From Pontibacter sp. G13 (GTDB lineage Bacteria > Bacteroidota > Bacteroidia > J057), in contig NZ_CP134696.1 of the NCBI RefSeq assembly GCF_031851795.1, positions 2,217,001 through 2,281,000 of the forward strand: 64,000 nucleotides of DNA, given 5' to 3'. Below, in pieces: positions 29,695-58,567 of this stretch. A program made the translations under genes and the position numbers. The stretch's first letter is position 1. Every line of letters starts with the position of its first letter. The notes under the pieces were generated by a model. It ran no database searches. It was not told where the DNA came from and saw only the letters and a list, made by a program, of their open reading frames with translations.

Positions 29695-29980
29695 GCTGAA
29701 ATTTCCTATTGAATCATTCTATGTGCAGGTGAGGTAGAGGTCTTGGTTCATCTGCCCCCTTATTACAGGTCCCTTCTTTCATTTCCTAGCCTCAAAAGGG
29801 GCCCATATTCCACAAAACGCCAAGGGATGAATCTCCTTTCGGCAGCCCAAAACCCACCCCTAATCACCTGATTAACAATTACATTTATCAAATTTTTTCT
29901 CAAAAAGTCCAAGTTCAGATAGGCTGAACTGCCCCAATCATATTCTTTAAAATTTGAAGTCATTTTATTCTACGTAAATC

Positions 29981-30011
29981 CGTCCACAATTCATGCACAT
30001 TCGTCCACATT
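29981..30011 (+). promoter_or_regulatory. 21-bp-period direct repeat upstream of the first secreted-enzyme operon
   Basis: CGTCCACA occurs at 29981-29988 and again at 30002-30009, exactly 21 bp apart, about 220 bp before the first gene. The spacing equals that of the ACAAATG repeats in front of the GH86 genes, and the core CCACA(A/T)T partly resembles them. It may be a divergent site for the same or a related regulator. Confidence 0.45.
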
Positions 30012-36789: not shown

Positions 36790-39700
36790 ATGACTCGGCT
36801 GTATCTCTGTATATGCCTTTGGCTGTTCTCCCAAGGACTCCATGCACAATGGAATGAACTCAGTGTGAAACAGGCCACAACCATGGAGGGCCTCTCCCAC
36901 AATAGCGTCCAATGCGTGTTTGAGGATAGTCGCGGTTTCATCTGGCTGGGAACTACAGATGGGCTGAATCGCTACGATGGGCACTCCTTCAAAACCTACC
37001 AGATCCGCTCCGACATCCCGGGCGCCCTCCAAAGCAATAGCATCTACCACATCTCGGAGGACGAAAACCAAATCCTCTGGATCAGTTCCCGCACCCATGA
37101 AGTTTGCTTCTTTGACTTAAAGAAAGACCGGTTCGTTCCTGCCGACGAGCTTCCAGTCCAATACCGGCTTCCAGCGGGATTTGTCTATTGGGAAGTGGTG
37201 CATGTGGGAAAGGAGGAACACTGGATTTGTGGGAAAGGCGATATCCTCATCTCCACCCCTACGGGAGTCAAATCCCTCAAGCAGGAAGGCCTTTTGCCTT
37301 TGGAAATGGAAATCGATATCCCCAAAATGGTGTCGAAAACTGCCGATTCTGTTTGGGTAGTGGTCCGATCTGGGCAGATATTCTGCATGAGTAGAGATGA
37401 TAGCGACCCTACAGGAATCCGGATTGATTTCCTCAAAAACAACATCAAGGTCAATGACCTCATTCTCTACAAAAATGGCATGCTACTCGGTACCAATGAG
37501 GGCATTTTGGCGAAATTTCCTTGGCATGAGCGACCAGTGAAGATCAATCTAGTTCCAGCCATCACGATCTACGCACAAGACGAAACGCTTTGGGTAGGAA
37601 CCCGCGAGGGAATTTGGGGCTACCAATTGGATTCTCTACTGGCTCCCTTCGAGGATCGGACAGCGGGCCAATTGCCCACTCCACATCCTCTGGAAGCATT
37701 CGGCAGGAAGGTCCCACACCTATCGAGCCATGTCTACAATATCACGGAAGATCGAAACGGGATCATCTGGATCGGAACCAAAGGAGATGGGCTCCTCCAA
37801 TTCAACCCGCGCGCGGATAAGTTTCGATTCTATTCCCTCGGCGGGGAACAGCGGATCAGGCGTAGGGTCCGGGCTATTCTTGAAGACCATCAAGGCCGGA
37901 TTTGGATCGGAAGCGATGGAAAGGGCATGTTTCGGCTCGCAACGGCCCCAGATGGAAATCGCCAACTGAAGGAAGTGCATCCAACCGTCAACCCCAATCA
38001 GTTCATTCATCGGCTGTACGAGTTGGATCTATTGGGAACGCCCCACCTGTTTCAAGGCACACACTTTCCTTCCAGGCCCAAAATCCTCGATATTTCCGGC
38101 GATCAGCCCAAGGAGGCAAACGCTTTCGAGAAACTCCTCCTGAAAAGGGGGTCGATCACGGATATCATCCAAGATTCGCAATGGATCTGGATTTCGACTT
38201 TCAATCAGGGGGTATTCCGCTACAACCTTGAGACAGATGAAATCACTGAAATCAAGATTTCCGAGGACACGGGGGAATGGCCCGCACACAAGCCGAGGAG
38301 TTTCCTTCTGGACCGCTCTGGAAGGCTATGGCTCGGGACCAGTAAGGGATTGTTTATGATTCCTGCGAATGAAAAGACCCGGCCTGTTCCGAGGATGCTG
38401 ACCTTCAACCATGATCCCAAAGATTCTACAAGTCTCAGTCATGACTATGTGTTGCCGCTCCTCCAATCCTCCTCTGGCGAAATCTGGATCGGCACAATGG
38501 GAGGCGGACTCAATCGATGGGTGGAAAAAAAGCAACGATTCGAACACTGGACTACCGCAGATGGCCTTTCCAGCAATACCCTCAAAGGCATTTTGGAGGA
38601 CGATGACGGCAATCTATGGATCTCATCGAATCGAGGTATTTCCCAATTCGATCCTTCCACCGAGCGATTTATCAATTACGATCCATCCGATGGGCTTCAA
38701 GACTATGAATTCACCGACTTGTCCTGCTACAAGACCCAAGCTGGGGAAATGCTCTTTGGGGGAGTCCGTGGCATGAATGCATTTTTCCCGGGGCAAATCC
38801 ATCAAGATGCCTCCGTATCGCCGGTGATATTTACGGATCTGCAAGTCATGAATGAGCAGATTTCCCCGCAGCAGAAACTCAATGGACGTGTCCTGATTGA
38901 CACCTATCTCCATGATGCCGCCGAATTGAATCTGCGGTATGACGAGCACACCTTTACCATCTCATTTGTCGGACTCAATTACCGCTCGCCCAAGAAGATC
39001 CAGTACCAGTATCGTCTAGCGGGATTTGAGGAAACGTGGGTACACACCGATGCCTCCGCTCGATTTGCCAAATACACCAAGGTTCCCCCGGGTACCTACC
39101 GATTCGAGGTCCGCGCCTCCAATACCGACGGCGTATGGAATGGTCCTACACGATCATTGATCATCACGATTCGTCCTCCATTTTGGCAAAGCAATGCAGC
39201 TATTGCGGGATATCTCGTCCTCGGATTGCTACTAATCTTCTTTTTCAGACGCTACTCGCTCATTCGCATCCAGCGAAAGAATGAGTGGATTATGCAGGCT
39301 TTCGAACAGGAAAAGGTGCAGGAATTGGCCCAGATGAAGCTGCAATTCTTCACCAATGTCTCCCACGAATTCCGCACACCGCTCACATTGATCCAAGGCT
39401 ATCTCGACAAGGTGATTTCCACCGTCAATCGAGAGGTTCGGCAAGATCTCCAGATCGTACAGCGGAACACGCGCATTTTGCTCAAACTCGCTTCCGAGCT
39501 GATGGACCTCCAAAAGATGGAGCAGGAGTATGAACACGACGTTCATTCGCTTGAAGACTTGACCATTCTGGCACGAGAAAGCTTCGATTCCTTCCGATGG
39601 TGGGCAGCGCAAAAGGATGTCCAGCTTGATTTTCAAGGCCCTGGCATCCCGCAAATGGTCTGGATGGATACGCATGGCATCGAGCGGGTGTGTTACAACC

Positions 39701-40935
39701 TACTGTCCAATGCGCTCAAGCATACCTCACCGGGAGGGAGTATCAAGATCAAGATCGTCGAATTTCAAAAGGAGGTCTGCTTGTCTGTTCAAGACACTGG
39801 CCAAGGGATCCCGAAGGAAGATCAGGCCTATGTGTTCAAGCGATTTTACCAAGCCACCAAATTCCGGGAGATTCACCGCATGGGAACGGGTATTGGGCTC
39901 GCGTACTCCAAGGCGATTGTGGAGCGACATCAGGGCAAACTATATTTTGAAAGTGAGGAGGGTGTGGGTACGACCTTCTTTTTGAGATTGCCCAAGGGTT
40001 CGTCTTATTTGTCAGAATCGCAAAAAGATCAGGAAGGTCAGGCCGAAACCTCCACGCACGCCAAGGTCGATGCTGCCTTGCTCAGCAAGCTCCGACAGCG
40101 CCCTGAGGTCATCGAGCCTTCTGAATTGTCCCCAAAAGCGCCATGTGTCTTGCTGGTAGAGGATAATCACTCGATCCGTTCGATGCTCAAGGAAATTCTG
40201 TCCACTCGATATCGGATCGTTGAAGCGGGAGAGGGGGAACAAGCACTGGAAATGTGCATCGCCCATCAACCGGATCTGGTGGTCAGTGATGTCATGATGC
40301 CCGGCATGGACGGACTGGCCTTTTGCGAGGCCCTTAAGCAACATGAGGAAATCAGCCATATTCCGGTGATTCTCCTGACTGCGAAGGATGGTGCAGAAAT
40401 GAAGCAAAAAGGCTATGAACATGGTGCGGATGCCTATGTGACCAAGCCGTTTGAAATGTCGGTCTTGCAAGCGCAAATTCAGTCGATCATCGAATCCCGA
40501 CAAAAGCTGATCGACAGGATCAAGACCTCTGGATATGAGATCAATCTCAAGGACGTCGAATTGACCAAGTCAGACAGTCAGTTCATGGAGCAGGTCTTGA
40601 GCGTGATGGAGCAGCATGTAGAGCAGATGGATTTTTCGGTGATACAATTTGCCCAGAGCCTCAATATGTCGCGAGCCACCTTCAACCGCAAACTGAAGGC
40701 TATGACCGGACATACCGCGTTGAGATTTATGCGAGATTATCGGATCAAACGAGCAGCCAGCTTGCTGTCCCAAAGCGACCTCTCCATCAAGGAGGTTTTC
40801 TTCCAATCGGGCATTGCCAACATGAAATCCTTCCGCCAATACTTCCGAGAAGAATATGGCCAGTCCCCTCGGGAGTACCGGAAAAATGCCCTGACTAAAA
40901 CATATGGATCAAGGGATGGCACAAATGGTATATAA
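36790..40935 (+). CDS. Hybrid two-component system regulator (HTCS) of the locus
   Basis: A 1381-residue one-protein signalling system. In order: signal peptide (1-20); two seven-bladed beta-propeller halves of ligand-binding repeats (~25-700; for example FIWLGTTDGLNRYDGHSFKT, IIWIGTKGDGLLQFNP, GNLWISSNRGISQFDP); Y_Y_Y domain (~715-790); membrane span (AAIAGYLVLGLLLIFFF, ~800-818); HisKA with NVSHEFRTPLTLIQG (phospho-acceptor His859); HATPase (NLLSNALKHT, DTGQGIPKEDQ, GTGIGLAYSKAI); receiver domain (VLLVEDNHSIRSM, phospho-acceptor Asp1167 in VVSDVMMPGMDG); and an AraC-type DNA-binding domain (MDFSVIQFAQSLNMSRATFN, then SIKEVFFQSGIANMKSFRQY). HTCS proteins bind periplasmic oligosaccharide and activate their PUL. 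It sits between the two enzyme blocks, and an operator-like repeat overlaps its own 3' end. Confidence 0.95.
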   Translation: MTRLYLCICLWLFSQGLHAQWNELSVKQATTMEGLSHNSVQCVFEDSRGFIWLGTTDGLNRYDGHSFKTYQIRSDIPGALQSNSIYHISEDENQILWISSRTHEVCFFDLKKDRFVPADELPVQYRLPAGFVYWEVVHVGKEEHWICGKGDILISTPTGVKSLKQEGLLPLEMEIDIPKMVSKTADSVWVVVRSGQIFCMSRDDSDPTGIRIDFLKNNIKVNDLILYKNGMLLGTNEGILAKFPWHERPVKINLVPAITIYAQDETLWVGTREGIWGYQLDSLLAPFEDRTAGQLPTPHPLEAFGRKVPHLSSHVYNITEDRNGIIWIGTKGDGLLQFNPRADKFRFYSLGGEQRIRRRVRAILEDHQGRIWIGSDGKGMFRLATAPDGNRQLKEVHPTVNPNQFIHRLYELDLLGTPHLFQGTHFPSRPKILDISGDQPKEANAFEKLLLKRGSITDIIQDSQWIWISTFNQGVFRYNLETDEITEIKISEDTGEWPAHKPRSFLLDRSGRLWLGTSKGLFMIPANEKTRPVPRMLTFNHDPKDSTSLSHDYVLPLLQSSSGEIWIGTMGGGLNRWVEKKQRFEHWTTADGLSSNTLKGILEDDDGNLWISSNRGISQFDPSTERFINYDPSDGLQDYEFTDLSCYKTQAGEMLFGGVRGMNAFFPGQIHQDASVSPVIFTDLQVMNEQISPQQKLNGRVLIDTYLHDAAELNLRYDEHTFTISFVGLNYRSPKKIQYQYRLAGFEETWVHTDASARFAKYTKVPPGTYRFEVRASNTDGVWNGPTRSLIITIRPPFWQSNAAIAGYLVLGLLLIFFFRRYSLIRIQRKNEWIMQAFEQEKVQELAQMKLQFFTNVSHEFRTPLTLIQGYLDKVISTVNREVRQDLQIVQRNTRILLKLASELMDLQKMEQEYEHDVHSLEDLTILARESFDSFRWWAAQKDVQLDFQGPGIPQMVWMDTHGIERVCYNLLSNALKHTSPGGSIKIKIVEFQKEVCLSVQDTGQGIPKEDQAYVFKRFYQATKFREIHRMGTGIGLAYSKAIVERHQGKLYFESEEGVGTTFFLRLPKGSSYLSESQKDQEGQAETSTHAKVDAALLSKLRQRPEVIEPSELSPKAPCVLLVEDNHSIRSMLKEILSTRYRIVEAGEGEQALEMCIAHQPDLVVSDVMMPGMDGLAFCEALKQHEEISHIPVILLTAKDGAEMKQKGYEHGADAYVTKPFEMSVLQAQIQSIIESRQKLIDRIKTSGYEINLKDVELTKSDSQFMEQVLSVMEQHVEQMDFSVIQFAQSLNMSRATFNRKLKAMTGHTALRFMRDYRIKRAASLLSQSDLSIKEVFFQSGIANMKSFRQYFREEYGQSPREYRKNALTKTYGSRDGTNGI
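40900..40927 (+). promoter_or_regulatory. Direct-repeat operator of GH86 gene 1, overlapping the HTCS coding end
   Basis: ACATATG at 40900-40906 and ACAAATG at 40921-40927, 14 bp apart (21-bp period). The pair lies within the last 12 codons of the HTCS gene, 114 bp before GH86 gene 1. It matches the four ACAAATG-N14-ACAAATG sites further along, with one mismatch in the first heptamer. Confidence 0.65.
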
Positions 40936-41041
40936 CCACTCCGACCATTGATAGGGAGCCACAATCCGGACTATCTTCATCCGAAACATGCGCCGCCTTT
41001 TGCAGGCGAATGACCCATTTTCGAATCATTCACCCGAAGAT

Positions 41042-43555
41042 ATGAAGAGACTCCCTCATCTGATGCTCATCCTGATCATGGCCGTTGGAGCCGTGTCATT
41101 GCCAAAGACCACCTCGGCCCAAGGGACGGTTACGATTGCGCCAAAGACCCAGCGTTTCATCGGTGGAGTCTCTCGTCTGGACCGGAGTAAATACATCACC
41201 TTCCACGGGTATTTCGGAGCCAATTCCACCGACCCAGAATTGGTTTCTTTCAGAAACACCTACAATCTCGCCGCTGGATATGACGGAGGCCGAAGAGCCT
41301 GGAGTCCTCTGAACAAGACAGATGACGATCTCGCGGGGACTATCCCCAATGTGCAAGACAAATATGAGGGAATCCGCTCTGTGGATGGAACGGTAGCCAC
41401 CGGACGCGCCGACCTGTTGATGCACAACCCGAACATCGATTATTCCACAACGGACATTACTCAACGAATCGCGGTTGTAACGGACTATGTGGCAAGGAGC
41501 TTCAAGGACGAATGGGATGATTGCCCAACGTTTTACGAGCCATTCAACGAGCCCATGATCAAAGCGCCGGACTTCTATCCGGGAGGATTCAATACCGCCA
41601 AGAATGATATCATCATCACCAGAATCTGCGAATTTCACCGAGAAATGGGCGCAGCCATCCATGCGTATCCGGAACTTCAGAATATTCAGATGATTGGATA
41701 CGCCTCGGCCTATCCTGAATTCGAGAAGGATGACTTCACCCTCTGGCAGAAACGCTACAAGAAATTCATCGACATCGCAGGTCCGGAGATGGATGGTTTT
41801 TCCATTCACCTCTATGACGGCGTGGGAGTCAACAATTCAGGAGGGAGAAGATCAGGCTCCAACATGGAAGCACTCTTGGATATGATCGAGGCCTATAGCT
41901 TCGAAAAACTCGGAGTCGTAAAACCGATTGCCGTGACGGAATTTGGGCGACTCGTGGAAAGTCAGCCCGGGTGGGTAGAAGGCGGAACTGTGGGCAACTA
42001 CGAACCGGTGGAAAACTCGCAGGCCGTTCGCTCTCAAAATCACATGGTCATGAGCTTCATGGAGCGAGCAGGCAATATGTCTGTGGCCATCCCCTTTTCA
42101 GTTGGAAAAACCAATCCTTTCAATGACAAATTCTCCCGTGCGTCACTCTGGGTGGAGCAGCCTGATGGTTCTTACCTACTGACCCAGCGGAGATTCTACT
42201 ACGAGATCTGGAAGGATGTAGCAGGCGACCGAGTCGAAGTTCAATCTAGCAATATCGACGTCCAGACGCAGGCATTTGTGAGTGGAGAAAAGCTCTACCT
42301 CGTGCTGAACAATCTCAACGATTCCACCCAAACCGTCAATCTGAATCTCCTGACCTCATCTGGCCTCCAAGAAGTGCATACCAAGCGCCTCAAAATTTTC
42401 GTGGACCAGATCCCGCAATTGACCGAATCCACAGACTCGATTGCTCCCAGCAACCTGACCATCAACTATGGAGAGACCGTGGTATTGACCTACACCTACG
42501 ATAGCCCGATCGAATTTGACCGAAGCATTCAAGGTCAGAAATACTACGCCAATTTGACCCTGAAACCCATTTCCGCCAATACCAATGTGGCTTTTACCAT
42601 CGAGGATGTGGAAACAGATACGGCGGGATACGCATTTCTTCGTGTGGGAGTAGGCCGGGCACATGGGTTGAGCCTGAATCCGACGGTTACCATCAATGGC
42701 CAATCGGTCTCATACACAGGAGACATCATCAAAGGGTATGATCAAAACACCCGAACCGCCTTTTTCGGGATCTTGGAGATTCCAGTGGATCTCGGCGTCC
42801 TTCAAACAGGTGCCAATGCGGTCAACATTCAGTTCCCAGATGGTGGAGGTCATATCAGCTCTGTAAGTTTGCAGGTGCGAACTTATGGCGAGCCCGTGAT
42901 TCCGGAGCCGGGTCCCATTGTCACTTTCCAAAACTTGGGGAGCTTCAGATACATGAGCGCCGGAAATTCCAGCCAGATGAATACGGTTGATACTGCCGGA
43001 GTCACCGAGGAATTTGAACTGGTGGATTTCGATGGTGGAATGCTCCTTGATGGGCAAGTTGCTCTAAAAGGAAATAATGGCCTTTATGTCAGTTCAGAGG
43101 ATGGAGCCCAAGAACTCACCTGCGAAAGCACCACCATTGGCCAATTGGAACTATTCGAGTTGGTAGATCAAGGAGATGGTTCCTATGCAATCAAAGGAAG
43201 CAATGGCCTATATCTCCGAGAAAATATGCTGTGTAATTCTGCCAATGTCAGTACATGGCAAAAGTGGACCATCACGGGTCTGCCCACTCCGACCAGTCTT
43301 GACGAGCGTCCGACCCCATTCAAGCTATTCCCCAATCCATGGAATCACGGAACGGCCACGATGGAATGGCACACCGCCCAGGGCCCCTACTCCCTGCGCA
43401 TCTTGGACCTTCAAGGCAAGGAGGTGTTCCGCGCTTCCGACATCGTGGGTTCTATCCAGATTCCCCAGAGTGCCGTCAAAAACCAAGGGGTATACATCGT
43501 CACTGTCTCGGATGGCAAGCATACGCATCACTCCAAGTGGGTCGTAAAAAGATAG
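41042..43555 (+). CDS. GH86-type beta-agarase/porphyranase 1: catalytic domain, one trefoil, T9SS tail
   Basis: An 837-residue secreted hydrolase of clan GH-A. The signal peptide ends in TTSAQG. The catalytic TIM-barrel (~30-400) has the acid/base Glu170 in FYEPFNEPMIKA and the nucleophile Glu300 in IAVTEFGRLVES, and the family-like FSIHLYDGVGVNNSGGRRSG followed by SNMEALLDMIEAYSF. Accessory beta-sandwiches follow (~410-620), then one fascin-like beta-trefoil (~626-750; repeats FRYMSAG, GLYVSSEDG, GLYLRENM) and a T9SS domain (~759-837, FKLFPNPW). I assign GH86 from motif similarity to known agarases and porphyranases. It probably endo-cleaves agar or porphyran outside the cell. It groups with gene 2 (Cys in DDCPT, LLMHNPNIDYS). 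Start: ATG at 41042. Confidence 0.82.
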   Translation: MKRLPHLMLILIMAVGAVSLPKTTSAQGTVTIAPKTQRFIGGVSRLDRSKYITFHGYFGANSTDPELVSFRNTYNLAAGYDGGRRAWSPLNKTDDDLAGTIPNVQDKYEGIRSVDGTVATGRADLLMHNPNIDYSTTDITQRIAVVTDYVARSFKDEWDDCPTFYEPFNEPMIKAPDFYPGGFNTAKNDIIITRICEFHREMGAAIHAYPELQNIQMIGYASAYPEFEKDDFTLWQKRYKKFIDIAGPEMDGFSIHLYDGVGVNNSGGRRSGSNMEALLDMIEAYSFEKLGVVKPIAVTEFGRLVESQPGWVEGGTVGNYEPVENSQAVRSQNHMVMSFMERAGNMSVAIPFSVGKTNPFNDKFSRASLWVEQPDGSYLLTQRRFYYEIWKDVAGDRVEVQSSNIDVQTQAFVSGEKLYLVLNNLNDSTQTVNLNLLTSSGLQEVHTKRLKIFVDQIPQLTESTDSIAPSNLTINYGETVVLTYTYDSPIEFDRSIQGQKYYANLTLKPISANTNVAFTIEDVETDTAGYAFLRVGVGRAHGLSLNPTVTINGQSVSYTGDIIKGYDQNTRTAFFGILEIPVDLGVLQTGANAVNIQFPDGGGHISSVSLQVRTYGEPVIPEPGPIVTFQNLGSFRYMSAGNSSQMNTVDTAGVTEEFELVDFDGGMLLDGQVALKGNNGLYVSSEDGAQELTCESTTIGQLELFELVDQGDGSYAIKGSNGLYLRENMLCNSANVSTWQKWTITGLPTPTSLDERPTPFKLFPNPWNHGTATMEWHTAQGPYSLRILDLQGKEVFRASDIVGSIQIPQSAVKNQGVYIVTVSDGKHTHHSKWVVKR

Positions 43556-43587
43556 CGTCAAATTTCCTCATCATATCAGACATGTGT

Positions 43588-43617
43588 GAAGGGCTGCTCT
43601 TTTGGGCAGCCCTTTTG
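43588..43617 (+). terminator. Terminator of GH86 gene 1
   Basis: GGGCTGC pairs with GCAGCCC over an 8-nt loop, followed by TTTTGG, 35 bp after the stop. Confidence 0.8.
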
Positions 43618-43779
43618 GTTTCTAGATCCTTGTCGGAAGAAACAGTGGAATGAAAGCCTGCAACATGGGGAATATTCACATTCCATTGAGCCGACATTTG
43701 GGCAAATGAGGCTGAGAAAATGGCCCCATTACTTCATCTGAAAAAAAATTTATCCCCACCACTCATTTTAGTCATTGAC

Positions 43780-43807
43780 ACAAATGTATGGCGCAATACC
43801 ACAAATG
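43780..43807 (+). promoter_or_regulatory. Direct-repeat operator of GH86 gene 2
   Basis: ACAAATG at 43780-43786 and 43801-43807, perfect heptamers with N14 between. TTGA begins 33 nt after the start of the second heptamer, a possible -33 element. The start codon is 313 bp downstream, so the leader is long. The 43618-44120 stretch otherwise has no gene. Confidence 0.75.
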
Positions 43808-44120
43808 TTGCAGACGTGTATTAGGGCCTGATATTGAGCAAAATATACCCTTACAATGAGCCAAAACGCCTTTTTCTTCGGCCATTTCCCCCGCAATTTA
43901 GTTCAAGCTCAGCCCCGAAAACATGCGGTCGCCTCTCGTTTGAAAGCCTTTTCTTCGCTTGATTTTTCACCGATTTCCTGCTGGAATGGCGAAATCCGGT
44001 TCGATCTCTTCAACCCGTTTTCCCCCGCTATCCCCATCGGTCATGGTCCGGTTGAGAATGAGGAATTCACAAGGCTGATGCGACCGATTTGAGTTCTATT
44101 ACGCTACATTTTCGTTTATC

Positions 44121-47003
44121 ATGACAAGGATTACCTCTTTGTTTACTTGGCTCCTACTCTGCGTAGGAATCGCATTCGCCCCAAGTAACGCACAAGCCCA
44201 AGGGACCATCACGATCGACCACAAGACCCAGCGGTTCATCGATGGCATCTCCCAACTGGATCGCAGCAAGTACATTACCTTCCACGGCTATTTTGGCAAA
44301 GGGTCCACCGATGCGGATTTGGCAAGCTTCCGGAATACCTACAATCTCGCATCCGACTATGTGGGTGGCCGTAGAGCTTGGAGTCCCCTGAACAAGGTCG
44401 ATGACGATCTGGCCGGAACCATTCCCAACGTGCAGGAGAAATACAACGGCATTCGCACCGTGGACGGAACGGTCGCGACAGGGCGTGCGGATCTCCTGAT
44501 GCACAATCCCAATATTGACTATTCCACCACGGACATCACACAGCGTATCGCGGATGTCACCGCTTACATTGCACAGAGCTATAAGGACGAATGGGACGAT
44601 TGTCCGACCTATTATGAGCCGTTCAATGAACCGATGATCAAGGCTTCAGACTTTTACCCCCAAGCCTCCAACACGGCACAGAACGATATCATCATCACGA
44701 AGATCTGTGAATTTCACCGTGAGATGGGCGCTGCCCTCAAGGTGTATCCAGAGCTCCAGAATATCCAGATGATTGGCTATGCATCGGCTTTCCCCGAATT
44801 TGAGAAAAACGACTTCACCCTTTGGCAGAAGCGCTACAAGAAATTCATCGACATTGCAGGTGCTGAAATGGACGGATTTTCCATTCACTTGTATGATGGA
44901 GTCGGTGTCAATAACTCCGGCGGTCGTCGATCTGGTTCCAACATGGAGGCCCTGCTGGACATGATCGAGGCATACAGCTTCGAAAAGCTCGGGGTGGTGA
45001 AGCCTATCGCGGTAACAGAATTTGGCCGTTTGGTAGAAAGTCAGCCCGGTTGGGTGGCTGGCGGAAGCGTCTCCAACTATGAGCCTGTAGAAAACTCACA
45101 AGCTGTCCGCTCCCAGAACCACATGGTCATGAGCTTCATGGATCGCGCCGAAAATCTGTTGGTGGCCATTCCCTTCTCCGTCGGAAAGACCAATCCCTTT
45201 GACGACAAATTCTCCCGCGCCTCTTTGTGGGTGGAACAGGCCGATGGTTCCTATTTGCTCACCCAGCGTCGATTCTTCTATGAAATCTGGAAGGATGTCC
45301 AAGGAGAACGCGTATACATCAATTCCTCCAACATCGACGTCCAGTCTCAGGCATTTGTAGATGGCAACAAGCTCTATGTCGTCCTCAACAACTTGAATGA
45401 CGCCACCCAGACGGTGAACATGAACCTCTTGGATCAGGCGGGCTTGCAGAGTGTCCAGACCAAGCGTCTCAAGATTTTCACCAACCAAGTTCCGCAACTG
45501 ACTACTTCCAGCTCTTCCTCCGCTCCATCGAGTGTCAGTGTGGCCTATGGCGAAACTGTAGTATTGACCTATACATTTGGTTCGAATGTCAATTTCACCA
45601 ATGACATCACGAGCAAGAAATTCTACGCGACCAGCACCCTGAAGCCTATCACGGCCAATACCGATGTCACCTTTACCATCAATGGAGTGAACAAGGGCTC
45701 TGGATCTGGAGAAGGCAAGTTGAGAATCGGCGTAGGTCGTGCCCTCACCCTCAATCGTCAGCCCATCGTGAAGATCAATGGTCAGACTGTCAGCTACAGC
45801 GGTGACATCATCAAAGGATATGACCAAAGTACCCGAGAGCAATTCTTTGGGATCTTGGAAATCCCTGTAGACCTCAGTTTGGTGAATGCAGGTACCAATA
45901 CCGTCAAGGTTCAATTCCCGGATGGAGGGGGACACGTGAGTTCCGTGATTCTTCAAGTGTCAGCCTACACCACACCCGTCAATCCAAGCCCGGGAGGGGG
46001 ATCGACCGCGACCTTCCGAAATCTCGGCAGCAACAAGTACATGAGTGCTGCGACCCCTACCTTGATGAACACGGTCACCACGGCCGGCGCTACGGAGGAA
46101 TTTGAAATCATCGACTTGGATGGAGGCGCTTTGGCCAATGGTCTGGTAGCCCTCAAGGGAAGCAACGGACTGTATGTCAGTTCTGAAAACGGCACCAAAG
46201 AAATGACCTGTACCCGCCCCAATGTCGGTGCTTGGGAGGAATTCACCTTGGAAGAAATCAGCAGTGGCGTATATGCGCTGAAAGCCAACAATGCACAATA
46301 CCTGCGGGAAAACATGCTCTGTACGAGCACTAGCGCAGGAACATGGCAACAATGGACTGTGGACCTGAGCACCATTGCATCCTTCCAGAATCTCGGAAGC
46401 GGCAACTACATGAGCTCGGCCAATGCCAATCAGATGTCCACTGTCGGGAGCGTGGGGGCTACCGAGAAATTCGAAATCATCGATGCAGGAAGTGGACTGG
46501 TCGCGCTGAAAGGCAGCAATGGCAATTACGTCAGCTCCGAAAATGGCACGCAGGAAATGACCTGTAACACCGCTACCATTGGCGCTTGGGAAAAATTCAC
46601 CTTGGAAGATCAGGGGGATGGCTCATTTGCACTCTTGGCAAACAACAACCAGTATCTTCGCGAAAACATGCTCTGCACATCGCCTAGTGTGAGCAATTGG
46701 CAGAAGTGGACCGTGACGACTGGATTGAGTGCGCGCCGTGGAATTGAGGCTGTGGAGGAACCATTCGAAGTGTATCCCAACCCGATGACTGGAACTGCGG
46801 TGATGGTCAATTGGGAACAAGCTGCTGCTCCCTACACCATCCAAATCATGGACTTGCGAGGAGCTGTGGTATTCCGGACTACCGATGTGGAGGGCAGATT
46901 CAAAGTATCCCGCGAGGCACTTGGGGAGAATGGCATCTATATCGTATCGGTCAATGATGGGACCACCACGCAATTCTCCAAACTTGTGGTAAGCGGGAAA
47001 TAG
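44121..47003 (+). CDS. GH86-type beta-agarase/porphyranase 2: catalytic domain, two trefoils, T9SS tail
   Basis: A 960-residue secreted hydrolase. The signal peptide (1-28) ends in NAQAQG. The catalytic domain parallels gene 1 residue by residue, with acid/base Glu170 (YYEPFNEPMIKA) and nucleophile Glu300 (IAVTEFGRLVES). After the beta-sandwich region there are two tandem fascin-like trefoils (~630-750 and ~752-875), each with a final QYLRENMLCTS strand, then the T9SS domain (~881-960, FEVYPNPMTG). Two binding modules could increase affinity for insoluble polysaccharide. The trefoils resemble those of gene 3 closely, while the catalytic part is nearer gene 1, suggesting module exchange between neighbours. 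It is its own transcription unit with operator and terminator. Confidence 0.82.
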   Translation: MTRITSLFTWLLLCVGIAFAPSNAQAQGTITIDHKTQRFIDGISQLDRSKYITFHGYFGKGSTDADLASFRNTYNLASDYVGGRRAWSPLNKVDDDLAGTIPNVQEKYNGIRTVDGTVATGRADLLMHNPNIDYSTTDITQRIADVTAYIAQSYKDEWDDCPTYYEPFNEPMIKASDFYPQASNTAQNDIIITKICEFHREMGAALKVYPELQNIQMIGYASAFPEFEKNDFTLWQKRYKKFIDIAGAEMDGFSIHLYDGVGVNNSGGRRSGSNMEALLDMIEAYSFEKLGVVKPIAVTEFGRLVESQPGWVAGGSVSNYEPVENSQAVRSQNHMVMSFMDRAENLLVAIPFSVGKTNPFDDKFSRASLWVEQADGSYLLTQRRFFYEIWKDVQGERVYINSSNIDVQSQAFVDGNKLYVVLNNLNDATQTVNMNLLDQAGLQSVQTKRLKIFTNQVPQLTTSSSSSAPSSVSVAYGETVVLTYTFGSNVNFTNDITSKKFYATSTLKPITANTDVTFTINGVNKGSGSGEGKLRIGVGRALTLNRQPIVKINGQTVSYSGDIIKGYDQSTREQFFGILEIPVDLSLVNAGTNTVKVQFPDGGGHVSSVILQVSAYTTPVNPSPGGGSTATFRNLGSNKYMSAATPTLMNTVTTAGATEEFEIIDLDGGALANGLVALKGSNGLYVSSENGTKEMTCTRPNVGAWEEFTLEEISSGVYALKANNAQYLRENMLCTSTSAGTWQQWTVDLSTIASFQNLGSGNYMSSANANQMSTVGSVGATEKFEIIDAGSGLVALKGSNGNYVSSENGTQEMTCNTATIGAWEKFTLEDQGDGSFALLANNNQYLRENMLCTSPSVSNWQKWTVTTGLSARRGIEAVEEPFEVYPNPMTGTAVMVNWEQAAAPYTIQIMDLRGAVVFRTTDVEGRFKVSREALGENGIYIVSVNDGTTTQFSKLVVSGK

Positions 47004-47070
47004 GCATTCAACCGTTTAGTAGCATTTGAAAAATTCGAGTCAAAGGGACTGAGTTCCCTAATTTTCCGAC

Positions 47071-47107
47071 GAGGGTTGCTTCCTGTAAGCAGCCCTCTTT
47101 GTTTTTG
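47071..47107 (+). terminator. Terminator of GH86 gene 2
   Basis: GAGGG-TTGCT pairs with AGCAG-CCCTC (one G-T wobble) over a 7-nt loop, followed by TTTGTTTTT. Confidence 0.85.
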
Positions 47108-47296
47108 GCTGAATCCTTGGGGGTTCCCAAAATCTCCATTCGGGGGTTCATGTGAGCGGGGGAATTCCAATCACTTCCATCACTCCCAAATCTGGGCTTT
47201 CCTCCTTGTGATTTTTTCTATTGGTGGAATAGACAGCATTCGGTCATTCCAACACCTTTCCTTCCAGTCCCAACATTCCCCCAAACGGGTGTTAAA

Positions 47297-47324
47297 ACAA
47301 ATGGGTAGGCAGTTGCTACAAATG
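47297..47324 (+). promoter_or_regulatory. Direct-repeat operator of GH86 gene 3
   Basis: ACAAATG at 47297-47303 and 47318-47324, N14 between, 327 bp before the start codon. ATGA lies 33 nt after the start of the second heptamer. The leader shares GAGCCAAAA and, 37-38 nt later, AATTTAG with gene 2. No gene lies in 47108-47651. Confidence 0.75.
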
Positions 47325-47651
47325 ATCCGGAATATTGAGGCTATGGAATCATGAGCTAAAAGTGCCCCTTCTTTGAGCCAAAATGACTTTCTCGGCACCC
47401 CAATCCCCTTCAATTTAGGTCCACCAACCTGGAAACACTGCTCCATTTCGAAACTGTTTTCCACATCTGAGCAGTCCCTTTATCTCGCTTTTTTCGACAG
47501 GGCGATTGTCTAAGGTAACCACATGATGTCAGTTGGATGAAGGATGTGCACCCCCTTCCCCATTTGGCGCTCCCCTACTTTTTGCTGCTGTCATTCATAA
47601 GGGACTTCTCTAGATGTGTGTGTTCCTCACTACTACAATTATATATCTCAC

Positions 47652-50534
47652 ATGAGAAGGATTACCTTTTTGTTCGCTTGTGCGCTATTATGCGTAGGGA
47701 TCTTCGTGCATCCCAGAACGGCCCAAGCCCAAGGGACCGTCACCATCGACCACAAGACCCAGCGATATATCGATGGCGTCTCCCAGTTGGATCGTGGCAA
47801 ATACATCAACTTTCATGGCTTCTTCGGAAATGGGTCTACGGATTCAGATCTTGTAAGCTTCCGGAATACCTACAATGTCGCTAGCACCAATGTAGGTTCA
47901 CGGAGATTCTGGAGCCCATTGAACAAGGTCGACGATGACGCCGCGGGAACCATTCCTAGCGTGACCGACAAGTACAATGGCACCAGAACGGTGGACGGGA
48001 CTGTCGCTACCGGAAAGTTGAACTCGCTCATGCATGATCCCAATGTGGATTATTCGGTAACGGACATTTCTCAACGCTCCTTAGATGTGGCGGCTTATAT
48101 CGCGCAAAGCTTCAAGGACGAATGGGACGATGTACCCACTTTCTACGAGCCCCTGAATGAGCCGATGGTTCACGCCAACGAGTTCTACCCGCAGAATGCC
48201 AATTCGACCCAGACCGATATCATCATCACCAAAATCTGCGAATTCTACCGCGACATGGGTTCTGCCCTTCACGCTGTGCCAGAATTGAGCAATATGCAGA
48301 TGATCGGATATGCTTCTGCCTATCCTCAGTTCGAAAACAATGATTTCGACCTGTTCACTCGCCGTTACAAAAAGTACATCGACATCGCTGGTGCAGACAT
48401 GGACGGATTCTCCCTCCACCTGTATGACGGCGTAGGACTCAACAACTCTGGCGGTCGTCGCTCAGGTTCCAATGCGGAAGCCATCATGGACTTGGTGGAG
48501 GCATACAGCTTTGAGGAATTGGGCGTGGTGAAGCCATTGGCCATCACAGAATATGGTCGCCTAGTGGAAAGTCAGCCCGGATGGGTAGCAGGAGGAAGCG
48601 TCTCCAACTACGAAGCTGTAGAAAACTCTCAAGCCCTCCGCTCGCAGAATCACATGGTCATGAGCTTCATGGAGCGCGCCGGCAACATGATGATCTCCAT
48701 TCCTTTCTCTGTAGGAAAATCCAACCCATACAACGACAAGTTCTCTCGTGCAGCACTTTGGATCGAGCAAACCAACGGGTCCTACGCACTGACAGAGCGC
48801 CGCTATTTCTTCGAAATGTGGAAGGACGTACAAGGAGATCGCGTGAGCATCAATTCCTCCAACATCGATGTCCAGACACAGGCTTTCGTGAACGGAAACA
48901 AATTGTACGTGGTCCTCAACAACCTGAATGACGCTACCCAAACTGTCAGCCTCAACATGGTGGATCAGACAGGCCTACAAACTGTGCAAACCAAGCGCCT
49001 GAAGGTCTTCACCAACGCAGTACCTCAGTTTACGACCTCCAGCTCTTCCTCAGCTCCATCCAGCTTGAGCATTGCCTACGGAGAGACTGTGGTATTGACC
49101 TACACCTTTGGTTCCAATGTCAGCTTCACCAATGACATCAACAGCCAGAAGTACTACGCGACGTCCACATTGAAACCCATCACCGCCAATACCGATGTGA
49201 CTTTCACCATCAATGGAGTAAGCAAAGGCTCTGGATCTGGTACTGCAACCTTGCGCGTAGGGGTAGGCCGGAATCTTGGCGCCAATCTCGCTCCGACCGT
49301 GAAAGTGAACGGACAGACCGTCACCTACAGTGGAGACGTAATCCGTGGATACGACCAAAGCAACCGCTCCAGATTCTTCGGCATCTTGGAGATCCCAGTA
49401 GATATGAGCCTCCTCAATTCTGGCACCAACACCGTGAAAGTGCAGTTTCCCGATGGCGGTGGACACGTGAGCTCTGTGATCCTGCAAGTGGAAGCCTATA
49501 CCACACCCGTTTCCGGTCCAGCAAGTGGGACGATGGCCACGTTCCAGAATTTGGGGAGCAACAAATTCATGAGTTCCGCGACTCCAACCTTGATGAACAC
49601 AGTCACTACCGCAGGTACTACCGAGGAATTCGAGATCATCGACTTGGATGGTGGTTCTCTTGCAGGAGGACTGGTAGCGCTGAAAGGGAGCAACGGACTG
49701 TACGTAAGCTCCGAAAACGGCACCAAGGAAATGACCTGTAACCGCGCCACAATCGGTGCTTGGGAGCAGTTCACCTTTGAGGAAATCAGCAGTGGCGTGT
49801 ACGCACTCAAAGCCAACAATGCCCAATACCTGCGGGAAAATATGCTCTGCACCAGCCCGACAGCCGGATCTTGGCAGCAGTGGACGGTGGATATGACCAC
49901 CATCGCATCCTTCCAAAACCTCGGAAGTGCTAAGTACATGAGTTCGACCAACCCGAGCCAAATGTCTACGGTAACCACCCTTGGGACTACCGAAAAATTC
50001 GAGATCATCGATGCTGGAGGAGGATTGGTTGCGCTCAAGGGAAGCAATGGCAATTACGTCAGCTCCGAAAATGGGACAACTGAGATGACCTGTAACACAG
50101 CGACTATCGGTGCTTGGGAGAAATTCACCCTAGAAGATCAAGGGGATGGTTCATTTGCCCTGCTTGCGAATAATGGCCAATACCTCCGCGAAAACATGCT
50201 GTGTACTTCCGCGACCGTTTCTTCCTGGCAGAAATGGACCGTCACCACTGGACTCAGCGCAAGACGAGGCGTCGAGCCTCCCGTGGAACAATCATTCGAA
50301 GTGTATCCGAATCCATTGAATGGGACCGCAGTCGTCGTGAACTGGGAACAGGCCCAGGCACCTTACCAGATCCAAATCATGGACCTGCGTGGTGTGGTCG
50401 TTTTCCGGACTTCAGATGTAGCGGGTTCCGTCAAAATCGCCCGAGATGATCTGGGAGGAAATGGTGTGTACATCGTAACTGTGAATGATGGCAAGACCAC
50501 TCAATTTTCGAAATTGGTGGTGAATGGAAGATAG
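47652..50534 (+). CDS. GH86-type beta-agarase/porphyranase 3: catalytic domain, two trefoils, T9SS tail
   Basis: A 960-residue secreted hydrolase. The signal peptide ends in TAQAQG. Catalytic Glu170 is in FYEPLNEPMVHA and Glu300 in LAITEYGRLVES. With genes 4 and 5 it forms a second subtype: Val-Pro before the acid/base strand (DDVPTFYEP), LMHDPNVDYS-type loop, VHA instead of IKA, Tyr instead of Phe in TEYG. Accessory beta-sandwiches are followed by two fascin-like trefoils (~629-750 and ~752-875) and the T9SS domain (~882-960, FEVYPNPLNG). The start is the ATG giving MRRITFLFACALLCVG; the longer GTG version lacks a signal peptide at its N-terminus. Confidence 0.82.
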   Translation: MRRITFLFACALLCVGIFVHPRTAQAQGTVTIDHKTQRYIDGVSQLDRGKYINFHGFFGNGSTDSDLVSFRNTYNVASTNVGSRRFWSPLNKVDDDAAGTIPSVTDKYNGTRTVDGTVATGKLNSLMHDPNVDYSVTDISQRSLDVAAYIAQSFKDEWDDVPTFYEPLNEPMVHANEFYPQNANSTQTDIIITKICEFYRDMGSALHAVPELSNMQMIGYASAYPQFENNDFDLFTRRYKKYIDIAGADMDGFSLHLYDGVGLNNSGGRRSGSNAEAIMDLVEAYSFEELGVVKPLAITEYGRLVESQPGWVAGGSVSNYEAVENSQALRSQNHMVMSFMERAGNMMISIPFSVGKSNPYNDKFSRAALWIEQTNGSYALTERRYFFEMWKDVQGDRVSINSSNIDVQTQAFVNGNKLYVVLNNLNDATQTVSLNMVDQTGLQTVQTKRLKVFTNAVPQFTTSSSSSAPSSLSIAYGETVVLTYTFGSNVSFTNDINSQKYYATSTLKPITANTDVTFTINGVSKGSGSGTATLRVGVGRNLGANLAPTVKVNGQTVTYSGDVIRGYDQSNRSRFFGILEIPVDMSLLNSGTNTVKVQFPDGGGHVSSVILQVEAYTTPVSGPASGTMATFQNLGSNKFMSSATPTLMNTVTTAGTTEEFEIIDLDGGSLAGGLVALKGSNGLYVSSENGTKEMTCNRATIGAWEQFTFEEISSGVYALKANNAQYLRENMLCTSPTAGSWQQWTVDMTTIASFQNLGSAKYMSSTNPSQMSTVTTLGTTEKFEIIDAGGGLVALKGSNGNYVSSENGTTEMTCNTATIGAWEKFTLEDQGDGSFALLANNGQYLRENMLCTSATVSSWQKWTVTTGLSARRGVEPPVEQSFEVYPNPLNGTAVVVNWEQAQAPYQIQIMDLRGVVVFRTSDVAGSVKIARDDLGGNGVYIVTVNDGKTTQFSKLVVNGR

Positions 50535-50561
50535 GAACTGATATTAGGATAAGAATTTTCA

Positions 50562-50596
50562 CGGGGCTGCCTTCACGGGTAGCCCTGATTTTTTGA
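50562..50596 (+). terminator. Terminator of GH86 gene 3
   Basis: GGGCTGC pairs with GTAGCCC (one G-T wobble) over a short loop, followed by TGATTTTTTG. Confidence 0.75.
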
Positions 50597-50641
50597 TCGA
50601 CGCTCGCCAAAGCTATTCCTCGAAATGCGAGCTGCCTTAAA

Positions 50642-50669
50642 ACAAATGAGTCAGTAGGTACTACAAATG
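50642..50669 (+). promoter_or_regulatory. Direct-repeat operator of GH86 gene 4
   Basis: ACAAATG at 50642-50648 and 50663-50669, N14 between, 220 bp before the start codon. TTGA begins 33 nt after the start of the second heptamer. Both heptamers and the bases just after them (AGTC; TTAT) are the same as in the gene 5 operator. Confidence 0.78.
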
Positions 50670-50889
50670 TTATGACGTACATCCCTCCTCGGGAATTGAC
50701 TCAAAATTGCCTTTAATTAGGCCTAATCGCATTTTTCGGCGATCAACTCACCGCTACTATCCTGTTACTGCTTAGATGAAATCATCGTCTTTCGCAGTCA
50801 TTTTCTATCCGTTCCGCTTGTCGCAACAAGCCATTTCTGCGGATGGACAATTGCCTTTCATCCTCCCATTTCCTAACCAAGACATCCCC

Positions 50890-52752
50890 ATGAAAAGGAT
50901 TTCCCGATTGCTTTCCTGTAGCATTCTTGCCATTTGGCTTGGCCTGTATTCGCCAGTAGTTCAAGCGCAGGATGTGATTACCATAGACTACAAAACTCAG
51001 CGATTCATTGGAGACGTTTCCCAATTGGATCGAGGCAAATATTTCACCTTCCACGGATTCTTCGGTGCCAATTCCACCGACCCAGATCTCATCCATTTTC
51101 GAAGCACTTACAATCTCTCTACTGATTACAGCGGTTCTCGGAGATTCTGGAGTCCCATGCACAAAGTGGATAACGACCTTTCTGGAAAACTGCCCAAAAT
51201 CAAGGACCAATATGATGGCGTTCGTGCCGTAGACGGAACCATCGCCACCGGCAAGCTGAACTCCCTGATGCACGATCCAGATCTGGATTATGCGGAGGTG
51301 GACATTTCGAAGCGTTCCAAGCAGGTAGCAACCTACGTCGCCCAAAATTTCAAGGACGAATGGGATGATGTGCCCACCTTCTACGAGCCGCTGAACGAAC
51401 CCATGGTCCACGCCAACGATTTTTACCCCGGCAAGTGGAACAAAGCCAAAACGGATCAGGTCATCGCCAAGATCTGCGCATTCCACCGAGACATGGGCGC
51501 GGCGATTCATGCCCTCCCGGAGCTGAGCAATATGAAGATCATCGGCTATGCTTCTGCCTATCCTTCCTTCGAAAAAAACAACTTTGACCTCTGGAAAAAA
51601 CGCTACAAGAAATTCATTGAAGTTGCGGGTCCAGAAATGGACGGATTTTCGGTACACCTGTACGATGGGGTGGGACTCAACAATTCCGGCGGTCGTCGTT
51701 CCGGCTCCAACGCCGAAGCCATCATGGACTTGATCGAAGCATACAGCTTTGAAGAACTGGGCGTTGTAAAGCCATTGGCCATCACCGAATATGGTCGTCT
51801 CGTGAAAAGTCAGCCGGGATGGAAACCGGGAGGCAAGGTGTCCAACTATGAGCCTGTGGAAAATTCTCAGGCCGTCCGTTCGCAGATCCACATGGTCATG
51901 AACTTCATGGAACGTGCCGACAACATGATGATTGCGGTCCCATTTTCCGTGGCCAAATCAGATCCCTACAAGCAGAAATTTTCCCGAGCAGCGCTATGGG
52001 TCAAGGAGCGGGACGGTTCCTATAAATTGACAGAGCGTCGCTTTTTCTTCGAAATGTGGAAGGACGTGCAAGGAAAGCGCGTCCAGATCCATTCCAGCAA
52101 TATCGATATCCAGACGCAAGCATTTGTCAATGGAAACAAGCTTCATGTAGTCCTGAACAATTTGAACGATGCCACCCAGACGATGGACCTGAAGTTGGTG
52201 GATGTCGAAGGATTGCAGCAGGTGGATATCAAACGCCTCAAGATCTTCGTGGACAAAGTTCCCTCATTCACCACCAGCAGCTCGGCGACTGCACCGAGCA
52301 ACATCAGCCTTGAATATGGGGAAACGGCCGTACTGACCTATACATTCGGTACGGATGTAGCGTTCGACAAAAGCATTCGCAGTCAGAAGTACTATGCGAC
52401 CTCCACCTTGAAGCCGATTGCTGCCGACACCGAAATTTCCTTCACGATCAAAGGAGTCAGAAAGGGAGCAGGAACTGCAACTCTTCGCGTAGGAGTTGGG
52501 CGCAAGCTGGAAGCCAATCTCCAACCGACCATCACCGTCAATGGCCAACCAGTCAACTACAGCGGAGATGTGATCCGTGGATACGATCAGAACAACAGAT
52601 CAAGCTTCTTTGGCACGATGGAGATCCCCGTGGACATGAGTCTGCTGAAGAAAGGAGCCAATACTATCACCGTGAAATTCCCCGATGACGGCGGGCATGT
52701 TACCTCCATGATTTTGCAGGTGAATACCTATGGCGAGGCAGTCGTCCGATAG
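50890..52752 (+). CDS. GH86-type beta-agarase/porphyranase 4: no trefoil, no T9SS tail
   Basis: A 620-residue exported hydrolase. The signal peptide ends in PVVQAQ. Catalytic Glu170 (FYEPLNEPMVHA) and Glu300 (LAITEYGRLVKS) are both present, so it should be active. The chain stops after the beta-sandwich region (VTSMILQVNTYGEAVVR). It lacks both the trefoil and the T9SS sorting domain of its four neighbours; a clean stop and good terminator argue against a frameshift. Without a T9SS signal it should be exported by Sec only and stay in the periplasm, where it could trim oligosaccharides imported by SusC. It is rich in Lys compared with its neighbours. The start at 50890 was chosen for its signal peptide. 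Confidence 0.82.
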   Translation: MKRISRLLSCSILAIWLGLYSPVVQAQDVITIDYKTQRFIGDVSQLDRGKYFTFHGFFGANSTDPDLIHFRSTYNLSTDYSGSRRFWSPMHKVDNDLSGKLPKIKDQYDGVRAVDGTIATGKLNSLMHDPDLDYAEVDISKRSKQVATYVAQNFKDEWDDVPTFYEPLNEPMVHANDFYPGKWNKAKTDQVIAKICAFHRDMGAAIHALPELSNMKIIGYASAYPSFEKNNFDLWKKRYKKFIEVAGPEMDGFSVHLYDGVGLNNSGGRRSGSNAEAIMDLIEAYSFEELGVVKPLAITEYGRLVKSQPGWKPGGKVSNYEPVENSQAVRSQIHMVMNFMERADNMMIAVPFSVAKSDPYKQKFSRAALWVKERDGSYKLTERRFFFEMWKDVQGKRVQIHSSNIDIQTQAFVNGNKLHVVLNNLNDATQTMDLKLVDVEGLQQVDIKRLKIFVDKVPSFTTSSSATAPSNISLEYGETAVLTYTFGTDVAFDKSIRSQKYYATSTLKPIAADTEISFTIKGVRKGAGTATLRVGVGRKLEANLQPTITVNGQPVNYSGDVIRGYDQNNRSSFFGTMEIPVDMSLLKKGANTITVKFPDDGGHVTSMILQVNTYGEAVVR

Positions 52753-52796
52753 CAAATGAATGCCGCCTGTGAACCGACAGGCTATCCAAGCGTGCC

Positions 52797-52836
52797 TGAC
52801 AGCCCATACCTTCATCGGTGTGGGCTGTTTCTGTTT
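52797..52836 (+). terminator. Terminator of GH86 gene 4
   Basis: CAGCCCATAC pairs with GTGTGGGCTG (with wobble) over an 8-nt loop, followed by TTTCTGTTTG, 45 bp after the stop. Confidence 0.8.
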
Positions 52837-52861
52837 GTGCTGCCTCGATCCTCCGATTAAT

Positions 52862-52889
52862 ACAAATGAGTCGCCCCCTAGGACAAATG
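52862..52889 (+). promoter_or_regulatory. Direct-repeat operator of GH86 gene 5
   Basis: ACAAATG at 52862-52868 and 52883-52889, N14 between, 201 bp before the start codon. A third, looser copy (GCAAATG, 52912-52918) lies further on. ATGA starts 33 nt after the start of the second heptamer. Confidence 0.78.
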
Positions 52890-53090
52890 TTATCGTGGAT
52901 ATTCCTCCAAGGCAAATGATTGAAAAAGTGCCCTTGATTGATCCAAATCCCCTTTTCAGGATCATCTGTCCCTACTAATTTCCCCTTACCACACCAATCA
53001 AAACCGCTCTACTCAAGCTGCTGGTTTTGCGCATACATGTGGAATCTTCCTTGCCCTTTTATCCATCCATTTCTTAACCCAGACATTCGC

Positions 53091-58539: not shown

Positions 58540-58567
58540 GAGATCAATGTTGTTGGTGAATACCTGC

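What the first reader, a model, noticed from the sequence alone, without database searches (positions are those of the whole stretch)
40900..52889. One operator (ACAAATG-N14-ACAAATG) precedes each of five GH86 genes
Pairs of ACAAATG with an exact 21-bp period occur at 40900-40927 (first heptamer ACATATG), 43780-43807, 47297-47324, 50642-50669 and 52862-52889, one per GH86 gene and on the same strand. The intervening 14 bp vary, while the heptamers are fixed, which is the mark of a site read on one face of the helix over two turns. AraC-type output domains carry two helix-turn-helix units and bind such direct repeats; the HTCS next door has that domain. In genes 2-5 a TTGA or ATGA begins exactly 33 nt after the start of the second heptamer and may be a -33 element.
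Basis: partly seen in the sequence, partly recalled or inferred. Interest (0 to 1): 0.82.

Follow-up and report, generated by a model that had tools for sequence, protein, structure and literature searches.

The report
Shared switch site for agar-digesting genes
In this Bacteroidota genome the same two-part DNA site, repeated exactly two helix turns apart, stands in front of five tandem genes and one distant gene for enzymes that digest red-algal cell walls; it is very probably the landing site of the sensor-regulator encoded next door, a strong new example of a kind of switch already known from gut Bacteroides.

Summary
ACAAATG-N14-ACAAATG occurs exactly at 43780, 47297, 50642 and 52862, and with one mismatch at 40900, one site per GH86 gene and on the coding strand. 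In the whole 7.67-Mb genome there are only six exact copies (about 0.13 expected). Four are these. The sixth is inside an unrelated coding sequence. Outside the repeat, the GH86 upstream regions have diverged to near chance-level identity, so the repeat is held by selection. The half-site is slightly longer than reported: TRnnACAAATG. The adjacent gene encodes a hybrid two-component system (HTCS) with an AraC-type output domain. Predicted HTCS operators in Bacteroides are direct repeats with an average 21-bp period (PMC3878776), so this is a new member of a known kind. Two points are weaker. Site 1 is imperfect and lies inside the 3' end of the HTCS gene. The '-33 element' is part of a longer conserved block that does not fit the published Bacteroidota promoter consensus. 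That this HTCS, rather than a second HTCS nearby, binds the site is inferred from adjacency only.

The parts
36790..40935 (+). Hybrid two-component system (HTCS), 1381 aa: Reg_prop sensor propeller, Y_Y_Y, HisKA, HATPase, receiver, AraC-type HTH output; carries the SHIP motif (residues 1189-1192)
   Evidence: Pfam; residues; nearest solved relatives are HTCS sensors 4a2l/3v9f and an HTCS receiver-output fragment 12aw
40896..40927 (+). Operator 1 (TAAAACATATG-N10-TGGCACAAATG), one mismatch, inside the 3' end of the HTCS gene, upstream of GH86-1
   Evidence: chance of <=1 mismatch at the fixed -21 position 0.0013
41042..43555 (+). GH86-1; signal-peptide start chosen at 41042 (MKRLPHLMLILIMAVGAVS)
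43776..43807 (+). Operator 2 (TGACACAAATG-N10-TACCACAAATG), exact
43834..43865 (+). Conserved downstream block wTGA-N18-wTGAnCCAAA in fixed register with operator 2
44121..47003 (+). GH86-2
   Evidence: nearest solved structure 4aw7 GH86A beta-porphyranase E=3.7e-109
47293..47324 (+). Operator 3 (TAAAACAAATG-N10-TGCTACAAATG), exact
47351..47382 (+). Conserved downstream block in fixed register with operator 3
47652..50534 (+). GH86-3; start at 47652 from similarity of its signal peptide to that of GH86-2
50638..50669 (+). Operator 4 (TAAAACAAATG-N10-TACTACAAATG), exact
50696..50727 (+). Downstream block, degenerate second half, in register with operator 4
50890..52752 (+). GH86-4; signal-peptide start at 50890 (MKRISRLLSCSILAIW)
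52858..52889 (+). Operator 5 (TAATACAAATG-N10-TAGGACAAATG), exact
52916..52947 (+). Conserved downstream block in fixed register with operator 5
53091..55595 (+). GH86-5; signal-peptide start at 53091 (MKRIPLLLPCALFGFW)

Best explanation
TRnnACAAATG-N10-TRnnACAAATG is the operator of the adjacent HTCS. The periplasmic propeller senses an agar- or porphyran-derived oligosaccharide and the kinase phosphorylates the receiver. The SHIP-type inhibitory contact with the AraC-type domain is then released, and two output domains bind the two half-sites side by side on one face of the DNA, 21 bp apart. This activates a separate promoter in front of each of the five tandem GH86 genes, and in front of a GH16 beta-agarase gene 5.2 Mb away. 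Shown here: the sites, their period, selection on them, their genomic distribution, and the domains of the HTCS. Inferred: that this HTCS binds them, that the effect is activation, and what the inducer is.
For: Four exact sites and one 1-mismatch site, one per GH86 gene on the coding strand. Only 6 exact matches in 7.67 Mb against about 0.13 expected from the heptamer frequency. The fifth relevant one lies 102 nt before the signal-peptide start of a GH16 gene whose nearest solved structures are agarases; the chance of such a hit is about 4e-4. Among genes 2-5 the heptamers are 100% identical while the flank from -60 to -7 is 22%, the spacer 39% and the stretch after the second heptamer 30% identical, against 26% expected at random. 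The three other GH86 genes of the genome, at other loci, have no site in their 20-kb surroundings closer than 3 mismatches, so the site follows the locus and not the enzyme family. The HTCS has an intact HisKA (SHEFRTP), receiver and AraC HTH, and the SHIP motif. In Bacteroides all 16 reconstructed HTCS operators are direct repeats averaging 21 bp between sites, some with distant target genes (PMC3878776). An agar locus of B. uniformis holding GH86 and GH16 genes is induced together, which its authors attribute to its single HTCS (PMC5849685).
Against: A second HTCS (62431 onward, TPR type) lies about 7 kb beyond the last GH86 gene, and DNA-binding-domain similarity cannot say which of the two binds. 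No orthologue of the HTCS was found in the 85,462-species collection or in 59 relatives (best about 36-41% over parts), so there is no phylogenetic footprinting. No transcription start, expression or binding data exist. Site 1 is imperfect and lies in coding sequence. No site precedes the neighbouring SusC gene or the HTCS itself at <=2 mismatches.
Confidence: 0.78

Rival explanations
1. The sites are an operator of the same type, but are bound by another regulator, most plausibly the TPR-type HTCS that begins at 62431 or a paralogous HTCS elsewhere.
For: The second HTCS is close and also ends in an AraC-type domain (L073:431-3379). The locus of a paralogous HTCS (L075) carries weaker intergenic sites of the same form: ACAAAATTG-21-ACAAAAATG before a sulfatase gene, and the two best intergenic matches to the extended motif that were not used to build it. 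A distant genome (G209) has three intergenic 1-mismatch pairs in a GH86/GH16 locus without any HTCS on that contig.
Against: The first HTCS is immediately upstream of, and co-oriented with, the GH86 array. The second is divergent from SusC/SusD (61651-57010), its more natural target.
Confidence: 0.15
2. The repeats are relics of tandem duplication of the GH86 genes with their upstream regions, without regulatory function.
For: The five genes are paralogues at 63-79% protein identity, and genes 2, 3 and 5 share further similarity downstream of the sites.
Against: Flanks and spacer are at or near random identity while 14 of 14 heptamer positions are fixed. The same site occurs before a non-homologous GH16 gene 5.2 Mb away.
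Confidence: 0.03
3. The sequences are part of a general promoter or post-transcriptional element (for example a leader-RNA motif) rather than a protein-binding operator.
For: The distance from site to start codon is long (about 100-330 nt), and genes 2-5 share a block at fixed distance downstream.
Against: The motif and the block are rare genome-wide and confined to these genes. The GH16 site lacks the block in register. No Rfam family matches except one tRNA far away. The exact 21-bp period fits helical phasing.
Confidence: 0.04

Closest known systems
HTCS operators of Bacteroides thetaiotaomicron and relatives (Ravcheev et al. 2013, PMC3878776)
   Same: Direct repeat, average 21 bp between tandem sites, upstream of polysaccharide genes next to an HTCS with AraC-type output; regulons may include distant single genes.
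   Different: Heptamer and regulator are new, with no orthologue found; here each of five tandem paralogous enzyme genes has its own copy, and no copy precedes the SusC/SusD pair.
AraC/XylS-family operators (AraC I1-I2, XylS Pm), from my own knowledge
   Same: Two asymmetric half-sites in direct orientation, about 21 bp apart, read by paired helix-turn-helix units.
   Different: The regulator is a membrane-bound hybrid kinase-receiver protein, not a soluble sugar-binding factor.
Agar PUL of Bacteroides uniformis NP1 (PMC5849685)
   Same: GH86 and GH16 agarases/porphyranases induced together, attributed to one HTCS.
   Different: There the genes form one contiguous locus; here the GH16 is 5.2 Mb away, and the GH86 genes are a tandem paralogue array with individual sites. 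No operator was described in the passages I read there.

Membership tests
HTCS operator (Bacteroides type) | Direct repeat of two conserved sites with about 21-bp period | tested here: met
   reference value from PMC3878776
HTCS operator (Bacteroides type) | Located upstream of polysaccharide-utilization genes near the cognate HTCS gene | tested here: met
   five GH86 genes directly downstream of the HTCS, GH16 at a distance
HTCS operator (Bacteroides type) | Conserved upstream of orthologous genes in genomes with an orthologous HTCS | not testable with these tools
   no orthologous HTCS found; conservation among paralogues and the GH16 gene used instead
HTCS operator (Bacteroides type) | Bound by the cognate HTCS output domain | not testable with these tools
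   needs gel shift or footprint
HTCS regulator | Single protein with Reg_prop/Y_Y_Y sensor, HisKA, HATPase, receiver and AraC-type HTH | tested here: met
HTCS regulator | S/CHIP inhibitory motif (PMC11253607) | tested here: met
   SHIP at 1189-1192; the D-K partner residues were not located
sigma-ABfr-type promoter (TTTG at -33, TAnnTTTG at -7) | TAnnTTTG with an upstream TTG/TTTG at proper distance, downstream of the operator | tested here: not met
   no TAnnTTTG within 1 mismatch in the block; none of the near matches further downstream has TTG at 15-24 nt; consensus from PMC7366714
GH86 beta-porphyranase/agarase | GH86 accessory domains and similarity to solved GH86 enzymes | tested here: met
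   (gene 2 against 4aw7, E=3.7e-109)

The most novel reading that the evidence does not exclude
This HTCS runs an enzyme-only regulon: separately promoted tandem GH86 paralogues plus a remote GH16 agarase, with no transporter of its own. The fixed 22-bp-spaced block wTGAgCnAAAA...wTGAgCCAAAA downstream of the operator would be a second tandem operator or an unusual activator-dependent promoter type, rather than the usual -33/-7 pair.
Probability: 0.25. Interest if true: 0.5.

Novelty: new member of a known kind. Interest (0 to 1): 0.4.

Why it matters
It gives a sharply defined candidate operator for an HTCS from sequence alone, in a genome where no orthologues help. It predicts a testable regulon: five GH86 genes and one GH16 agarase, all red-algal galactanases. 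It extends the 21-bp direct-repeat rule, published for gut Bacteroides, to another family of Bacteroidota, and provides six natural variants for working out how AraC-type HTCS domains read DNA.

Tried and rejected
Footprinting with orthologues failed: the genome-contig scan found only distant kinases, the 59 relatives had no close homologue, and only 2 of 59 relatives and 3 of 396 phylum genomes (the window's own genome is counted in each) have any GH86. A general test for 21-bp repeats around other HTCS genes gave no overall enrichment at lag 21 outside this window; only the L075 locus gave a convincing-looking case. The exact copy in L005 was rejected as chance (inside a DUF4175 coding sequence, lacks T-4). 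The one-mismatch copies L008, L010, L011, L012 and L013 lie in coding sequence; L007 is intergenic, about 0.2-0.3 kb before a membrane-protein gene, and was not followed further. Two pattern searches for the downstream block used a wrong spacing and are superseded. Assigning the site to HTCS 1 or HTCS 2 by similarity of their output domains to the L075 paralogue did not discriminate.

Full report
Observation. The pairs of ACAAATG with a 21-bp period are present at the stated coordinates and strand: exact at 43780, 47297, 50642 and 52862, and with one mismatch at 40900. Allowing two mismatches, the window has 8 matches against 0.70 +/- 0.85 in shuffles. Nine of the eleven plus-strand heptamers of the window sit in these sites. 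A blind search over intergenic DNA of the window and 13 loci for recurring direct repeats at any lag from 10 to 44 found, in this window, 11 recurring pairs at lag 21 (all of them these sites) and 3 at lag 22, the downstream block.

Surroundings. The gene upstream (36790-40935) is a complete hybrid two-component system: Reg_prop propeller, Y_Y_Y, HisKA, HATPase, receiver and AraC-type HTH, with the SHIP motif that in Bacteroides correlates with autoinhibition of the output domain (PMC11253607). The five genes behind it are GH86 enzymes; for gene 2 the nearest solved structure is the GH86A beta-porphyranase 4aw7. Judged by signal peptides, their true starts are 41042, 44121, 47652, 50890 and 53091, so the sites lie about 114, 313, 327, 220 and 201 nt before the start codons. 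Site 1 lies within the last codons of the HTCS gene, beyond the conserved output domain.

Genome-wide distribution. The exact pattern occurs six times in the 7.67-Mb genome, where about 0.13 would be expected from the heptamer frequency. Four are the GH86 sites. One (C1:7476973) falls in a long ORF, but the likely true start with signal peptide (MRISLLLLAALIADVSWSQAQ...) is 102 nt downstream of it. The protein is GH16, closest to solved agarases (3wz1 E=6e-68, 1o4z, 4atf), and a second GH16 gene follows. The sixth is inside a DUF4175 coding sequence. The other three GH86 genes of the genome have no comparable site near them. Thus the site marks a set of red-algal galactanase genes defined by locus and function, not the GH86 family as such.

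Selection. Among genes 2-5 the heptamers are identical at all 14 positions, while the flank from -60 to -7 (22%), the spacer (39%) and the stretch after the second heptamer (30%) are near the random value of 26%. The genes themselves are 63-79% identical in protein. The sites are therefore kept by selection. Six sites give the half-site TRnnACAAATG: T at -4 in 11 of 12 half-sites, purine at -3 in all. In a genome scan with the extended form, the six training sites come first, by construction. The next two intergenic matches, which were not used to build it, lie 8 kb apart in the locus of a paralogous HTCS with a sulfatase, SusC, L-fucose dehydrogenase and tagaturonate reductase. That locus also has ACAAAATTG-21-ACAAAAATG in front of its sulfatase gene. 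These weaker sites may belong to that paralogue.

The '-33 element'. In genes 2-5 a wTGA begins exactly 33 nt after the start of the second heptamer. It opens a block wTGA-N18-wTGAnCC(AAA) at fixed register, clear in genes 2, 3 and 5 and degenerate in gene 4. Genome-wide the pattern with up to two mismatches occurs only at genes 2, 3 and 5. It is absent in register at gene 1 and at the GH16 gene. Published promoters of the phylum have TAnnTTTG at -7 and TTTG near -33, the latter not found in Flavobacterium (PMC7366714); no TAnnTTTG-like box within one mismatch lies in the block. I regard the block as probably part of the GH86 promoters, but its reading as a -33 box is not supported.

Mechanism. 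The most likely mechanism is binding of two HTCS output domains in tandem on one face of the helix, activating each GH86 promoter and the GH16 promoter in response to an agar or porphyran oligosaccharide. The type of operator is known: all 16 reconstructed HTCS operators of Bacteroides are direct repeats averaging 21 bp between sites, and some of these regulons have distant members (PMC3878776). What is inferred is the identity of the binder (a second HTCS lies nearby; cannot discriminate), the sign of regulation and the inducer.

Other genomes. No orthologous HTCS was found. In a distant genome (G209) three of 13 one-mismatch-or-better pairs lie in intergenic DNA of a 38-kb GH86/GH16/sulfatase contig (binomial P about 2e-4, post hoc), one of them about 90 nt before a GH16 gene, but no HTCS lies on that contig and none in that genome is a close relative. 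I treat this as a lead only.

Verdict. The finding is real and its main interpretation is probably right. It is a clear new member of a known kind of operator, with a confirmed genome-wide prediction.

Noticed in passing
G000:C1:7476973-7477000 (L006:1501-1528; L093:9973): Fifth relevant exact copy of the site, 102 nt before the signal-peptide start of a GH16 beta-agarase gene 5.2 Mb from the window; a second GH16 gene with a T9SS tail follows.
   Followed up: yes
L075 (G000:C1:1718001-1738000), sites at 2258(-), 8806(+) and 16642(-): Locus of a paralogous HTCS with sulfatase, SusC, L-fucose dehydrogenase and tagaturonate reductase carries weaker intergenic 21-bp direct repeats of ACAAA(T/A)TG type; possibly a fucose-polysaccharide locus with a related operator.
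   Followed up: partly
L095 and L122 (G209:C44), 9835, 11993 and 32970: Three intergenic ACAAATG-N14-ACAAATG pairs (one mismatch each) in a GH86/GH16/sulfatase locus of a distant Bacteroidota genome, without an HTCS on the contig.
   Followed up: partly
43834-43865, 47351-47382, 50696-50727, 52916-52947: Conserved block wTGAgCnAAAA-N11-wTGAgCCAAAA, itself a 22-bp direct repeat, at fixed distance from operators 2-5; found only at these genes in the genome.
   Followed up: partly
29976-30010: A different 21-bp direct repeat (CGTCCACA-N13-CGTCCACA), about 220 nt before a secreted lectin-domain gene (30230-31900) that heads a lectin/sulfatase gene run; may be chance.
   Followed up: no
57010-61651 (-) and 62431 onward (+): SusD/SusC pair divergent from a second, TPR-type HTCS; no ACAAATG repeat lies in their shared 780-bp intergenic region, so this transporter may belong to the second HTCS.
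   Followed up: partly
43807-44121 and 47324-47652: Unusually long stretches (over 300 nt) between operator and start codon for GH86-2 and GH86-3, with no Rfam match.
   Followed up: partly
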